From Hyphomicrobium sp. CS1BSMeth3 (GTDB taxonomy: Bacteria > Pseudomonadota > Alphaproteobacteria > Rhizobiales > Hyphomicrobiaceae), in assembly GCF_900117415.1 (NCBI RefSeq), contig NZ_FPEI01000003.1:124001-188000 (forward strand): 64,000 nt of DNA. The letters are read 5' to 3'. Made by a program: the position numbers and the translations under genes. The stretch's first letter is position 1, and every line of letters starts with the position of its first letter. Below are positions 567 to 42,532 of the stretch, in pieces. Below the pieces are notes generated by a model, which had not been told where the DNA came from, did no database searches, and saw only the letters and a program-made list of their open reading frames with translations.

Positions 567-1182
567 TCAAAGTATCCCTTCTCCCCGTCCTTGTCGCGCT
601 GGAAGCGCGCCTCTGGCGCGACGAGAAGGTTAGGATGAGGGGCGGGGACTTGTGCCGACGTTGGCGTATGCCGCCGCCCCTCACCCTCTCCCCATTGAAG
701 ACAATGGGGAGAGGAGGAAGAACGGCGTCACACGCGAGCGCTGTCCGCTCGCCAGCGAGGGGACGCAATTAATTGGCACCGGCGCACAACAGTCATGAGC
801 GCGCGACTGCGCGCCGGCCGGTAGGCCGTACCAGGAAACCACAGCGCCTCTTCCCGGCAGCCCGCGATCCCAAGCGATCGCTGTCGCTCTTGCCGCCGCG
901 GGCATAGCACCGCGCGGGAAAGCGATAGCGCCTCTTCCCGGCAGGCCGCGGCAAACAAAATAATGAAAGATGCAGAGCCGCGAAGGCCGTCGCGGCGGAC
1001 GAACCCGCGTGGTCCCTACAATGATGTAGGTGGGCGCCGTGTGTCCGGAACCAGGATCCCGGCCAGGGACAGCTCCCAAGCGGATCTTATAGGCCCCCGG
1101 GTCGTATAGCCCTAACGCACCCCGCAGCCCTGCACCCCAAGAAGTAAGCCAGTTCGGCCCCATTTCCAAGGGGCGCCGCCCC
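567..1182. other. 616-bp non-coding gap with an imperfect 24-bp direct repeat
   Basis: I see no credible gene between katG and the convergent DMT transporter. Open frames on the minus strand (681-1169, 728-958) are rich in Arg, Gly and Ala and resemble no family. The stretch holds the 685-714 hairpin and two copies, with one mismatch, of a 24-base sequence starting AGCGCCTCTTCCCGGCAG at 843-866 and 927-950. Confidence 0.5.
685..714. terminator. 13-bp stem hairpin downstream of katG
   Basis: CCTCTCCCCATTG (685-697) pairs with CAATGGGGAGAGG (702-714) around a 4-base loop. It sits 119 bases after the katG stop. No T-run follows on the plus strand, so it is a weak candidate for an intrinsic terminator. 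It may instead be one of the C/G-rich intergenic palindromes common in Rhizobiales. Confidence 0.45.
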
Positions 1183-2127: not shown

Positions 2128-2295
2128 CGAGTGTGATGATCGAGAAATTCGCCGCCACTCGCGGCACGGTATCGAGCGAATTTCTCGATCTGAATCACAC
2201 TAGCAAGATTGTGATCCTAGTGTCCCTTTTGATTCCGATAGTTCGCTCCCGACACTTGCATTGAGGTATGACGAACTTCGGAATCGGGACACTAG
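2128..2295. repeat. twin-hairpin intergenic element, copy 1
   Basis: Two imperfect palindromes stand in tandem. Hairpin A (2128-2203) has GTGTGA...TCACAC outer stems and an inner stem GAGAAATTCGC / GCGAATTTCTC. Hairpin B (2217-2295) runs from CTAG to CTAG with outer stem CTAGTGTCCC / GGGACACTAG and inner ATTCCGA / TCGGAAT. A 13-base spacer separates them. The whole unit recurs in inverted orientation at 34639-34805. It begins 5 bases after the murA stop codon, so hairpin B could also shape the murA transcript end. Confidence 0.85.
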
Positions 2296-2300
2296 AGGCC

Positions 2301-3596
2301 TCAGCCCGTGAGCCGCTCGATGTGGGCGCCGCAGCGCGAGAGCTTCTCCTCGAGCCGCTCGAAGCCGCGGTCGAGATGATACACGCGGTTGATCATGGTC
2401 TCGCCGTCGGCCATGAGCCCGGCAATGACGAGCGACACGGAAGCCCGCAGGTCCGTCGCCATGACAGGCGCGCCGCGCAGCGTGCCGACACCGCGGATGG
2501 TGGCGGAATCACCGTGCAGACGGATGTCCGCACCGAGCCGCGCGAGCTCCTGCACGTGCATGAATCGGTTCTCGAAAATCGTCTCGCGGATCACGCTCGT
2601 GCCCTTGGCCCGCGTCATCAGCGCCATGAGCTGCGCCTGAAGATCCGTCGGGAAGCCCGGGAAGGGCTGCGTCTCGATGCTGACAGGCTCGATGGCATTG
2701 CCATTGCGCGCAATGCGCACGCCCTCTGCCGTCTCCTCGACCGTCGCGCCGGTCTGCTGCAGCGTGTCGAGTGCCGTCTCGAGCAGCTCCTTGCGCGCGC
2801 CCTCGAGCACCACGTCGCCGCCGGTCGCCGCAATGGCAAAGGCGTAGGTGCCCGTCTCGATACGATCGGGCAGCACGTGATGCGTCGCGCCCTCGAGCCT
2901 GTCGCGCCCCTCGATCCTGAGCGTCGACGTGCCGATCCCGTCGATCTTGGCGCCCATCTTCATGAGGCACTGAGCGACGTCGGCGACCTCGGGCTCGCGC
3001 GCCGCATTCTCGATCACGGTCTCGCCGCGCGCGAGGCTCGCCGCCATCAGCACATTGTGCGTCGCGCCGACCGACACCTTCGGCATCACGACGCGCGCGC
3101 CTCTGAGCCCGCCCTTCGGCGCCTTGGCCACAACGTATCCCGCATCGATGTCGATCTCGGCGCCGAGCGCCTTCAAGCCGAGCAGGTGCAGGTCGACCGG
3201 CCTCGTGCCGATGGCGCAGCCGCCGGGAAGCGACACGCGCGCCTCGCCCGCGCGCGCCAGCAGCGGGCCGAGCACCCAGAAGCTCGCGCGCATGCGCGAG
3301 ACCATCTCGTAAGGCGCCGTCGTATCGACAATGTCGCGCGCCGTGAAATGAAAGGTCTCGCCGAGGAGATGGGGATCGGCATTGGCGCGCTTGCCGTCGA
3401 CGGAGTGGTCGACGCCGTGGTTGCGCAGGATGCGCGCCAGCAGATTGACGTCCGCGAGGTTCGGGACATTCTTCAGCGTCAGCCGGTCACTCGTGAGCAG
3501 GCTCGCGATCATCAGCGGCAGGGCAGCATTCTTGGCGCCCGAGATGGGGATCGTCCCCTTGAGCCGCTGTCCTCCAGTGATCCTGATCCGGTCCAT
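2301..3596 (-). CDS. murA: UDP-N-acetylglucosamine 1-carboxyvinyltransferase
   Basis: MurA catalyses the first committed step of peptidoglycan synthesis, transferring enolpyruvate from PEP to UDP-GlcNAc in the cytoplasm. The 431-residue product is the usual length. It has the substrate-binding Lys22-Asn23 in [10 protein letters not shown] and the catalytic loop cysteine, Cys127, in [16 protein letters not shown]. The C-terminal region has the [11 protein letters not shown] helix. The start is ATG at 3596, giving [10 protein letters not shown]. It is preceded by a purine-rich GGAAGGGG, and a longer frame to 3635 adds only low-complexity residues. Confidence 0.96.
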
Positions 3597-10342: not shown

Positions 10343-11544
10343 TGCGCTTCCCCTGTCTGTACGATGCTTTTTCCGATCAGGTCGTCGACCTGGGCGTCAT
10401 TGAAACCGAAGTCCCGGAGCACGGCGGCCGTGTGCTCGCCGAGCAGAGGCGGCGCCGTGCGAACGGTCTCCTTGCCGATGCTGTCGAGCCGCAGCGGGTT
10501 CGACATGAGCTTGATGTCGCCGAGCTTGGGATGCGCCACGGTCTCGACCATGCCCCAGTGCTTGACCTGGGCGTCCTCGAAGACGTCGGCCATGTCGTAG
10601 ATCGGACCGGCTGGCAGACCGAGCTTCACGAGATCCTTCGTCCATTCGAGACGCGTGCGCGAAGCAAACACGGCGTTGAGCCGCCGCTTGATCTCGTCGC
10701 GATTGCGCATACGCGCGGTGTTGTCCTTGAATTCCGGGTTCGTTGCGAGCTCGTCGAGCCCCGTCAACGCGCAGAGCTTGCGCCACATGTCGTCGGTCAG
10801 CGCGGCCATGTTGAAGGGCCCGTCCTTGGCTTCGAAAGCGCCGTACGGACAGATCACCGGATGGTCGTTGCCGATGCGCTTCGGCGTGTCGCCGAGCGTG
10901 AGCTGGCGCTGGCCCTGCACGTTGAGCATGCCGACGAGGCCGGCAAGCAGCGACGTCTCAACGCGCTGCCCTTTGCCGGACGCCATGCGCTCGATGACCG
11001 CGGCCTGGATGCCGAGCGCCGTCCACATTCCGGCACACACATCGCCGACCGGGAGGCCGACGCGCACCGGTCCGCTCTCCTGCGTACCGGTTATGCTCAT
11101 GAAGCCGGACATGCCTTGCGCGATCTGATCGACGCCGGGCCAATCTCCGTAAGGTCCATCGCGGCCAAAGCCGGTGATGTTTGCGTAGATCAGACGCGGG
11201 TTCGTCTGTTTGAGCGTGTCATAGCCGAGGCCCATGTCCTCCATGGTGCCGGGCTTGAAGTTCTCGACGAGGATGTCGGACTTGGCCGCCAGCTCCGCGA
11301 TCAGAGCGATGCCTTCGGGCTTGCGGAAGTCGAGCACAAGACTGCGCTTGTTGCGATGGACGCTCAGGTAATAGACGCTGATGCCGTCGGCGAACGGCCC
11401 CCAGGAGCGAATCATCTCACCCTTGGGCGACGGCTCGACCTTCACCACGTCGGCGCCGAGGTCCGCGAGGATCATGGTGCAGTAAGGACCGGCAAGCGCG
11501 CGCGACAGGTCCAGAACGCGCAAGCCTTGAAGAGGCAGGGGCAA
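10339..11544 (-). CDS. CaiB/BaiF family (class III) CoA-transferase
   Basis: The product (401 residues from a TTG start) is a class III CoA-transferase, moving CoA between carboxylic acids. Family features are LRVLDLSRALAGPYCTMILADLGADVVKVE at the N-terminus, ENFKPGTMEDMGLGYDTL, and the GVDQIAQGMSGFMSITG region containing the probable catalytic Asp. The TTG at 11544 is chosen because GGAGG lies 8 bases upstream and homology begins right after it. The longer frame to 11748 reads into unrelated residues. It probably activates the acid imported by the downstream TRAP system. Confidence 0.9.
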   Translation of the reverse strand: MPLPLQGLRVLDLSRALAGPYCTMILADLGADVVKVEPSPKGEMIRSWGPFADGISVYYLSVHRNKRSLVLDFRKPEGIALIAELAAKSDILVENFKPGTMEDMGLGYDTLKQTNPRLIYANITGFGRDGPYGDWPGVDQIAQGMSGFMSITGTQESGPVRVGLPVGDVCAGMWTALGIQAAVIERMASGKGQRVETSLLAGLVGMLNVQGQRQLTLGDTPKRIGNDHPVICPYGAFEAKDGPFNMAALTDDMWRKLCALTGLDELATNPEFKDNTARMRNRDEIKRRLNAVFASRTRLEWTKDLVKLGLPAGPIYDMADVFEDAQVKHWGMVETVAHPKLGDIKLMSNPLRLDSIGKETVRTAPPLLGEHTAAVLRDFGFNDAQVDDLIGKSIVQTGEAQ

Positions 11545-34638: not shown

Positions 34639-34805
34639 CTAGTGTCCCGATTCCGAAGTTCGCCTGACCTCGATGCTGGCATCCCGAGCGAATTTCGGAA
34701 TCAAAAGGGACACTAGAATCATAAACTTGCTAGTGTGATTCAGATCGAGAAATTCGCTCGATACCGTGCCCCGAGATGCGGCGAATTTCTCGATCATCAC
34801 ACTAG
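34639..34805. repeat. twin-hairpin intergenic element, copy 2 (inverted relative to copy 1)
   Basis: Hairpin B' (34639-34716) and hairpin A' (34730-34805) are each bounded by CTAG and separated by 13 bases. The reverse complement matches 2128-2295 over nearly its whole length. Inner stems such as AATTCGC/GCGAATT are conserved, while loops and some flank bases vary. It fills the gap between phnE and the L,D-transpeptidase and could act as a terminator for the phn transporter operon. Confidence 0.87.
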
Positions 34806-42367: not shown

Positions 42368-42532
42368 CTAAAGCAACGGACTTGAAATTCGCCTCACCTC
42401 GATTGCGGGCAGGGCGCGAATTTCAAGTCCAAAGTTGCTTTAGAAATATTGAGTCTAAAGCGTCTTTGGACCTCGAATGCGACTTCGAGCCCGACCCGAA
42501 CCGTGGGTCGCATTCGAGGTCCGACACTTTAG
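42368..42532. repeat. twin-hairpin intergenic element, copy 3 (diverged)
   Basis: Two tandem hairpins, 42368-42443 and 42455-42532, are each bounded by CTAAAG/CTTTAG and separated by 11 bases. The first has inner stem CTTGAAATTCGC / GCGAATTTCAAG and the loop CTCACCTCGATTGC, like copy 2. The second has GGACCTCGAATGCGA / TCGCATTCGAGGTCC. Sizes (76 and 78 bases) equal those of copies 1 and 2 although the outer stems differ. Confidence 0.8.

What the first reader, a model, noticed from the sequence alone, without database searches (positions are those of the whole stretch)
2128..2295. Family of twin-hairpin intergenic elements with conserved geometry (with 34639-34805 and 42368-42532)
Three elements in one 64 kb window each consist of two tandem hairpins of 76-79 bases separated by 11-13 bases (total 165-168). 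Copies 1 and 2 are inverted relatives bounded by CTAG. Copy 3 is bounded by CTAAAG/CTTTAG and has quite different stems, yet keeps the same size, spacing and an AATTCGC/GCGAATT core, with a shared CCTSACCTCGATKC-type loop in one hairpin. Paired changes on both sides of stems imply selection or copying of structure. This is BIME/MITE-like, but I know no named family with this layout.
Basis: partly seen in the sequence, partly recalled or inferred. Interest (0 to 1): 0.8.

Follow-up and report, generated by a model that had tools for sequence, protein, structure and literature searches.

The report
Twin-hairpin jumping DNA of IS630 type
The three odd double hairpins are copies of two families of short jumping DNA elements, over a hundred in this genome, whose ends and CTAG landing sites match a known class of bacterial transposon (IS630), but in which each end has been doubled into a hairpin.

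Summary
Window 2128-2295 and 34639-34805 belong to family A (about 95 places in the 6.02 Mb genome), 42368-42532 to family B (34 places). Both look mobile. A copy of B sits inside a copy of A at an internal CTAG with TA duplicated, and the same A in a sister species lacks it; in 24 of 26 site comparisons the sister species have no element. No REP-type (Y1) transposase was found in the genome. Family A's outer arms match the inverted repeats of IS630-family transposons in relatives and in alphaproteobacterial plasmids (best case 20/23 and 18/23, left for right), which also sit in C-TA-G. So A is an IS630 (Tc1/mariner) type MITE; B very probably is too, its transposon not found. Unusual anatomy: each transposon end is followed by an inverted copy of itself carrying a 3-4 nt insert after its seventh base. 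My inference is that these inner copies are disabled ends. Stem pairs covary strongly, but single changes look neutral for pairing, which argues against an RNA function in place. Closest described thing: Caulobacter/Brucella CIR elements (two arms plus linker, TA termini), whose mobility was unexplained in the 2007 review read here.

The parts
2128..2295 (+). Family A twin-hairpin MITE, copy 1 (left CTAG decayed to CGAG)
2128..2203 (+). Copy 1 hairpin 1: outer arm a (transposon end, GATCG type) and inner arm b with TCA insert
2217..2295 (+). Copy 1 hairpin 2: inner arm c with TTTT insert and outer arm d (transposon end, GATTC type); ends 5 nt from the murA stop codon
34639..34805 (-). Family A twin-hairpin MITE, copy 2
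34639..34716 (-). Copy 2 hairpin 2 (arms c, d)
34730..34805 (-). Copy 2 hairpin 1 (arms a, b)
42368..42532 (+). Family B twin-hairpin MITE (C-TA-AAGC...CTTTAG type)
42368..42443 (+). Family B hairpin 1, AAA bulge on its inner (3') side
42455..42532 (+). Family B hairpin 2, TTT bulge on its inner (5') side

Best explanation
A and B are non-autonomous IS630/Tc1-mariner-type transposons (MITEs) with doubled ends. SHOWN: they are dispersed; B entered a copy of A at TA within CTAG and duplicated the TA; most sites examined have no element in sister species; family A's outer 23-nt arms match the inverted repeats of IS630-family transposons, in the clearest cases left for right. SHOWN: each outer arm is followed, after a variable loop, by an inverted copy of itself that carries a 3-4 nt insert after its seventh base, in both families and, for A, across genera. 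INFERRED: an IS630 transposase, supplied from elsewhere since none was found in this genome, binds the outer arms, cuts next to the flanking TA and pastes the whole unit into another CTAG-like site; CTAG is rare, and rarer still in genes, so insertions fall between genes and on stop codons. INFERRED, less sure: the inserts push the cut site of the inner arms out of register with the transposase-binding part, so inner ends are not used and the unit moves whole. INFERRED: stems stay paired because arms are copied onto each other, or all bind transposase, in the transposing lineage, not because an RNA hairpin is needed where the copy lies.
For: Copy number: 95 A places and 34 B places at 100 bits or more after dropping reverse-strand duplicates, counted by eye (150 candidates scored each, so lower bounds). 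Mobility: B inside A at CACAC-TA[AAGC...GCTT]TA-GCGAGG, while the orthologous A in G002 has no B. Of 26 site-by-genome comparisons with both flanks matched (9 own sites), 1 is occupied and 1 keeps a 14-nt end remnant; model searches of the 116.9 kb of relatives found only 2 elements, that one and one at another place. Parent: ends of the G006 IS630 (L154) match arm d 20/23 and arm a 18/23, 0 of 20000 shuffles each, crossed pairs 15/23. Of seven IS630s compared, left-for-right correspondence is clear in L154, L191 (Bradyrhizobium sp. CB82; 16 v 14 and 18 v 13) and L193 (Roseomonas; 16 v 14 and 18 v 15) and partial in L159 (d 18 v 10, a 15 v 15). The L159 transposase scores 285 bits to NCBIfam IS630 (cut-off 100). 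IS630 prefers TA in CTAG (title of Tenzen and Ohtsubo 1991, seen only in the reference list of PMC2170065). In the IS630-family element ISY100 the 24-bp repeat is what transposase protects and 30 bp per end suffice (passages of PMC2170065). Inserts: A arm b 65 of 65; arm c 60 of 65 by column count, 63 by reading; B 19 and 21 of 21. Intergenic: 66 of 67 fetched elements not flagged coding after removal, against 850 of 2000 random positions.
Against: No IS630 transposase found in this genome (PF13358; lineage search); the lineage is in only 11 of 103 family genomes and absent from G001, G002 and G004, which carry A. Three of the seven IS630s compared (L156, L194, L195) show no left-for-right correspondence. 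The repeat pair of L159 (14/24) is by itself at the level that 14 of 270 shuffled loci reach; L154, L156, L191, L193, L194 and L195 are at 16-21, reached by 1 of 270. Family B's outer arms match the IS ends tested at 11/23 at best. By eye none of the IS630 ends folded is itself a doubled hairpin, so no intermediate was seen. Two empty sites read CTTG rather than CTAG, others do not resolve. The c-arm insert varies more (13%) than the stems. No transposition was observed; disabling of inner ends is untested. At the one shared site loops differ more than stems by eye, which could mean some constraint in place.
Confidence: 0.85

Rival explanations
1. The twin hairpins are functional in place (terminator, mRNA stabiliser, CcrM or protein binding site) and are kept paired by selection on the RNA or DNA structure at each locus.
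For: Very stable folds; 84 double-change cells against 8.5 +- 2.7 in shuffles; stems vary 3.6% and loops 20% among 34 own copies; many copies lie just after stop codons, median 22 nt for 53 stop sides.
Against: Single-sided stem changes give 30 G:T and 77 mispaired cells, about what I reckon unselected mutation would give, while two-sided changes are 84 Watson-Crick, 0 wobble and 6 mispaired; private changes in stems (1.6%) and loops (2.5%) differ little, p = 0.03, against a nearly sixfold difference for all changes; sites are mostly not shared between species; no Rfam match at gathering score; intergenic placement is also explained by CTAG scarcity: outside elements 54 sites where composition predicts 462, and 4 of 54 flagged coding against 1150 of 2000 random positions.
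Confidence: 0.1
2. REP/BIME elements moved by a Y1 (RAYT) transposase as single-stranded hairpins.
For: Paired hairpins with bulges in mirror orientation, intergenic, 3'-end proximity.
Against: No PF01797 match in the genome, while the control rings in 5 of 14 genomes; TA duplication; ends match DDE-type IS630 repeats; foot is CTAG or CTAAAG, not GTAG or CGTC (families as described in PMC3733652, passages).
Confidence: 0.02
3. Stem pairing is maintained only by template-switch or gene-conversion correction of one arm by the other, without any role of the hairpin in transposition; the inner arms are passengers.
For: Two-sided changes are 84 Watson-Crick, 0 wobble, 6 mispaired; two hairpins whose loop has flipped and whose inner insert is gone, as if recopied from the outer arm (L064, L097:981-1143); inner and outer arms vary equally (4-7% versus 5-6%).
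Against: Such correction should erase the inserts, yet the b-arm insert is the least variable stretch (2%; the c-arm insert varies 13% in sequence) and inserts recur in both families at the same offset.
Confidence: 0.35

Closest known systems
CIR elements of Caulobacter and Brucella (Chen and Shapiro 2003; known here only through section 7 and table passages of PMC2229807)
   Same: Alphaproteobacterial, intergenic, two long hairpin arms joined by a linker, 5'-TA-3' at termini, several sequence families, GANTC sites (A has 3.3 per copy against 0.63 in shuffles).
   Different: CIRs are about 110 bp (these 158-170); GANTC is not enriched in B (0.76 against 0.69); no CIR sequence was available, so sequence relation is untested; the review says more information is needed on the mechanism of CIR mobility.
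IS630/Tc1-mariner MITEs such as RUP of Streptococcus pneumoniae (PMC2229807 passages)
   Same: Short non-autonomous element, TA duplication, terminal repeats like those of an IS630-family transposon.
   Different: RUP is 107 bp with 9-bp TIRs; the review says that bacterial repeat elements other than CIR form one stem-loop by pairing of the two ends, whereas here each end pairs with its own inverted copy, giving two hairpins with inner inserts.
IS630-family transposons with GTGTCCTGAT-like ends (L154, L191, L193, L195)
   Same: C-TA-G context and, in L154, L191 and L193, the same left/right end difference as A's arms a and d.
   Different: Full transposons of about 1.15-1.18 kb with transposase; no doubled ends seen in the copies folded (L191, L193 and L195 were not folded).
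REP/BIME and REPIN elements
   Same: Intergenic hairpin pairs, high copy number.
   Different: Different transposase class, foot sequence and target duplication.
RIME elements of Rhizobium (Osteras 1995; not held; recalled)
   Same: Recalled as intergenic with two large palindromes in Rhizobiales.
   Different: No sequence to compare; A (copy 2) and B (window copy) match nothing in 72,556 plasmid records by blastn at 1e-5.

Membership tests
IS630-type MITE | Duplicates TA on insertion | tested here: met
   Nested B in A with TA duplicated and orthologous A without B in G002. For A itself shown less directly: TA at both ends and empty sites that do not all resolve
IS630-type MITE | Terminal repeats match an IS630-family transposon (family A) | tested here: met
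   20/23 and 18/23 to the two ends of L154, 0 of 20000 shuffles each (its printed header wrongly says 100000); L191, L193, L195 16-18/23
IS630-type MITE | Terminal repeats match an IS630-family transposon (family B) | tested here: inconclusive
   At most 11/23; arm B_a related to A_a (14/23)
IS630-type MITE | CTAG target preference | tested here: met
   C-TA at the left and TA-G at the right end in most copies; two empty sites read CTTG
IS630-type MITE | Transposase present in the host genome | tested here: not met
   PF13358 and the lineage's transposase both 0 in G000; present in G003, same genus. Not strictly defining, since MITEs can outlive their transposase
REP/BIME with RAYT | Y1 tyrosine transposase in the genome | tested here: not met
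   PF01797 0 matches
REP/BIME with RAYT | GTAG or CGTC tag at the hairpin foot | tested here: not met
   Foot is CTAG or CTAAAG
CIR elements | Two hairpin arms with linker, TA at termini | tested here: met
CIR elements | About 110 bp long | tested here: not met
   158-170 bp for complete copies
CIR elements | Conserved GANTC methylation site | tested here: inconclusive
   Enriched in A, not in B
CIR elements | Sequence homology with CIR1-CIR4 | not testable with these tools
   Chen and Shapiro 2003 not held; no CIR sequence at hand
RIME | Sequence homology with RIME1/RIME2 | not testable with these tools
   Osteras 1995 not held
Known RNA family | Rfam match at gathering score | tested here: not met
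   Only 6S and tRNA in the window

The most novel reading that the evidence does not exclude
The twin-hairpin intergenic repeats of Alphaproteobacteria (these, CIR and perhaps RIME) are one superfamily of IS630-type MITEs in which each transposon end is duplicated as an inverted, register-shifted decoy; the decoy arms with their 3-4 nt inserts are a working part of transposition (end choice, or capture of transposase without cutting), conserved while stem sequences turn over.
Probability: 0.3. Interest if true: 0.72.

Novelty: new variant of a known kind. Interest (0 to 1): 0.55.

Why it matters
It names a likely mover and a landing rule for a kind of alphaproteobacterial repeat whose mobility was reported as unexplained in the 2007 review that I read in part, and it gives a concrete, cheap test: does an IS630 transposase mobilise a 165-bp element whose ends are doubled into register-shifted hairpins? 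It also gives simple non-functional explanations for three features often read as regulatory function: stable hairpins, covariation, and placement after stop codons (CTAG targeting).

Tried and rejected
RAYT/Y1 hypothesis: rejected for lack of a PF01797 match. IS630 transposase in the own genome: sought, not found. Plasmid and viral copies: none found, by blastn at 1e-5 with one A and one B copy and by one exact pattern each in viral contigs. Naming the host: the one genome-contig scan, with a neighbouring protein, gave only a 42% hit in a Hyphomonadaceae MAG, and a TRAP permease search of plasmids gave hits under 60%, so the genus is not named; that it is Hyphomicrobiales-like is only my guess. 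Rfam: no family. CcrM/GANTC as the common function: rejected as general because B shows no excess. A third stem family in the sampled 143.8 kb: none beyond A and B, although subfamilies with swapped stems occur (L066, L068, L070; L106:6419-6585; L169). Doubled ends on the IS itself: none seen by eye in folds of 8 IS copies, two of them identical. Literature searches for this layout with IS630; none of the listed titles and abstract starts describes it, but subscription papers are mostly not held and I did not open most of the papers listed. Some IS630 loci of relatives gave best repeats bounded by ATA and TAT (L163, L165, L171), so other IS630 groups there do not sit in CTAG.

Full report
WHAT IS THERE. 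The three elements are as described; copies 1 and 3 fold far better than shuffles (z -8.7 and -10.3). Window 2128-2295 (+) and 34639-34805 (-) are family A; 42368-42532 (+) is family B. Covariance models built from 22 A and 21 B copies find 95 A places and 34 B places at 100 bits or more in the 6.02 Mb genome. I counted these by eye from 97 and 45 rows after dropping reverse-strand duplicates; one A row is truncated (130 nt) and one spans a nested pair; 150 candidates were scored per search, so these are lower bounds. A few single hairpins also occur (for example L079, L085, L095). By blastn, A is in 18 of 60 genomes sampled, own included: 18 of the 36 of its own family (several only weakly) and 0 of the 24 of other families. 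None was found in plasmids or viral contigs. B outside the own genome was seen only as blastn matches in G002, G003 and G004.

ANATOMY. Write a copy as arm a, loop, arm b' (inverted), spacer of usually 11-13 nt, arm c, loop, arm d' (inverted). In A: a = GTGTGAT-GATCGAGAAATTCGCC, b = GTGTGAT-TCA-GATCGAGAAATTCGCT, c = GTGTCCC-TTTT-GATTCCGAAGTTCGCT, d = GTGTCCC-GATTCCGAAGTTCGCC. In B: a = AAGCAAC-GGACTTGAAATTCGCC, b = AAGCAAC-TTT-GGACTTG..., c = AAGCGTC-TTT-GGACCTC..., d = AAGCGTC-GGACCTCGAATGCGAC (consensus). Each is preceded by C-TA in most copies. So the two inner arms are copies of the two outer arms with 3-4 nt inserted after base 7. A scan blind to family finds the bulge on the inner side in 35 of 36 element hairpins, on the outer side in none. 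I aligned 65 A copies from 13 genomes (40 own), chosen by me; left out were, among fetched copies, the truncated ones, L069, L073 and L075, and L136, which reads the same as L135. The b-arm insert is present in 65 of 65; the c-arm insert passes the column count in 60, three more have a 3-nt TTT placed one column later, and two (L064, L097:981-1143) lack it and have the loop flipped. In 21 own B copies the inserts are complete in 19 (hairpin 1) and 21 (hairpin 2). One ancestral hairpin is likely, not shown.

MOBILITY. L072 holds an A copy cut by a B copy...GTCACAC-TA-[AAGC...GCTT]-TA-GCGAGGCTATGATTCTAGTG.... The G002 genome has the same A at the same site without B. This fixes B's ends and a TA duplication. 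For nine own sites in two 20-kb stretches, 26 comparisons with sister species had both flanks matched; junction letters were printed for 20 of them and for two more with one flank. One is occupied (that A in G002), one (G004) keeps a 14-nt remnant of the left end, and models run over all 116.9 kb of fetched relatives find only one further element, in G004 at a different place between two own sites. Two empty sites read CTTG in one relative each where the element is bounded by CTAG-like ends; others do not resolve, so the target is not always seen as CTAG. In G011 two nearly identical A copies share one CTAG, as do two identical IS630 copies in G006.

THE MOVER. No Y1 transposase (PF01797) and no IS630 DDE_3 domain (PF13358) was found in the genome. 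Of 29 genomes searched (own plus 28 of its family), 11 have PF13358. I fetched 20 such loci and looked for TA-bounded inverted repeats: the best pair is bounded by CTA and TAG in 8 of 20, and by ATA and TAT in others (L163, L165, L171). A shuffled control run later shows that a C-TA/TA-G pair of 13/24 or more arises in 39 of 270 shuffled loci, of 14 or more in 14, and of 16 or more in 1; L154 (18), L156 (17), L167 (17), L168 (19), L172 (18), L180 (19), L191 (16), L193 (17), L194 (16) and L195 (21) are beyond it, while L159 (14), L164 (15), L161 and L179 (13) are not on this score alone. L159 is supported by L191, whose transposase is 88% identical and whose ends are similar. In G006 (L154, two tandem copies) the ends are GTGTCCTGATTCCGAAGTTTTCCG and GTGTCCTGATCGATAAATTTCCCG, 20/23 to arm d and 18/23 to arm a, against 15/23 for the crossed pairs; L159 gives d 18 v 10 and a 15 v 15; L156 of G003, the own genus, 17/23 to both arms at one end and 13/23 to both at the other (20000 shuffles each, although its header says 100000). 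The L159 transposase is IS630 by NCBIfam (285 bits, cut-off 100) with DDE_3 and HTH domains. Searching it in 103 family genomes gives 11, none of them the own genome, G001, G002 or G004; of 12 of its loci examined, 7 gave C-TA-G-bounded repeats, four of them elements already taken, not counting a weak pair in L186. Five plasmid relatives were taken: Bradyrhizobium sp. CB82 (a 16 v 14, d 18 v 13), Roseomonas marmotae (a 16 v 14, d 18 v 15), Rhodovastum atsumiense (a 17 at both ends, d 16 at both), Sinorhizobium fredii (a 10 and 13, d 13 and 15), B. barranii none found. In L154, L159, L191 and L193 the GATCG-type end lies on the transposase-start side and the GATTC-type end on the other, the same difference as between A's arms a and d. 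So left-for-right correspondence is clear in three of seven, partial in one and absent in three. Preference for TA in CTAG is known for IS630 (title of Tenzen and Ohtsubo 1991 in the reference list of PMC2170065), and in ISY100, of the IS630 family, the 24-bp repeat is what transposase protects and 30 bp per end suffice (passages). Hence A is an IS630-type MITE; B shares layout and TA duplication and partly sequence, but its transposon was not found (11/23 at best). By eye none of eight IS copies folded has a doubled end.

COVARIATION AND WHAT IT MEANS. On the 65 A copies, 27 of 45 pairs change on both sides in at least one copy, 84 cells against 8.5 +- 2.7 in shuffles and 9-18 in slid controls; on 21 B copies, 6 of 57 pairs (11 of 500 shuffles reach that), 17 cells against 6.5 +- 2.7. 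Cells are not independent events. Stems vary far less than loops (3.6% against 20% in 34 own copies), and inner arms as little as outer arms; the b-arm insert varies 2%, the c-arm insert 13%. But single-sided stem changes comprise 30 G:T and 77 mispaired cells, no sign that wobble pairs are favoured by my reckoning, while two-sided changes are 84 Watson-Crick, 0 wobble and 6 mispaired; and private changes are nearly even between stem and loop (55/3497 against 38/1526, p = 0.03). I read this as pairing kept in the transposing lineage, by arm-to-arm copying or by transposase binding, followed by near-neutral decay after insertion. Caveats: private changes are undercounted in variable loops, and at the one shared site (L072 against L119) loops differ more than stems by eye.

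CONTEXT. For 67 fetched elements (of about 129), a crude gene caller gives 53 facing stop codons at a median of 22 nt and 80 facing starts at 84.5 nt; in 16 of 53 the stop ends within the element's own terminal bases (A's end reads TAG, B's TAA). After removing the element in silico, 1 of 67 sites looks coding (L074) against 1150 of 2000 random positions. Outside elements CTAG occurs 54 times where composition predicts 462, and 4 of 54 are flagged coding, so targeting CTAG alone would give intergenic and stop-codon insertion.

LITERATURE. CIR elements of Caulobacter and Brucella are described in PMC2229807 (section 7 and passages read) as two arms with a linker, TA at termini, a GANTC site, mechanism of mobility not ascertained. 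In the MITE review PMC10969869 a text search found no occurrence of IS630 or hairpin (five passages seen). PMC3733652 (passages) covers GTAG and CGTC REPs. PMC2873474 and PMC2573895 (passages) cite or name RIME among annotated repeats. Chen and Shapiro 2003 and Osteras 1995 were not held. GANTC is enriched in A (3.3 per copy against 0.63) but not in B (0.76 against 0.69); in A it falls in the transposon-end sequence GATTCC, at the b-arm insert and in the spacer, so it may be a by-product.

VERDICT. Real, mobile, and of a known transposon class, with an anatomy (ends doubled as inverted, register-shifted copies) that I did not find described in the searches listed. The disabled-inner-end mechanism is inference.

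Noticed in passing
L064, L097:981-1143, L069: Single hairpins within a twin can be flipped or have an inverted loop, in two cases with the inner insert gone, as if one arm had been recopied from the other.
   Followed up: partly
G011 (listing): 14 of the 15 listed A copies of G011 read on the + strand of its two large contigs; other genomes are mixed. May be chance or an effect of which candidates were scored and listed.
   Followed up: no
L154 (G006:C84:72300-76575): Two identical IS630 copies in tandem share a single CTAG; the neighbouring ORF at 94-1164 looks to me like a recombinase (recalled, not searched).
   Followed up: partly
L107:10065-10186 and 10476-10622: Another dispersed intergenic repeat (CCCTCACCCTA..CCCTCTCCCC type) with 90-93% matches elsewhere in G002 and G003.
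   Followed up: no
L158:1126-1291 and L169:955-1119: A-type twin elements lie near IS630-type (PF13358) coding stretches; the L169 copy has yet another stem sequence (GTTTCGCAAGTTCC).
   Followed up: partly
window and L106-L109: Outside elements CTAG is depleted more than eight-fold (54 seen, 462 expected) and 4 of 54 sites look coding, which by itself makes a CTAG-targeting element intergenic.
   Followed up: yes
window 971-1133 (-): 6S RNA (Rfam, 65 bits), about 1 kb from element 1.
   Followed up: no
window 2296-2301: Element 1 ends 5 nt from the stop codon of murA (gene on the minus strand), so any read-through from murA would enter the twin hairpin at once.
   Followed up: no
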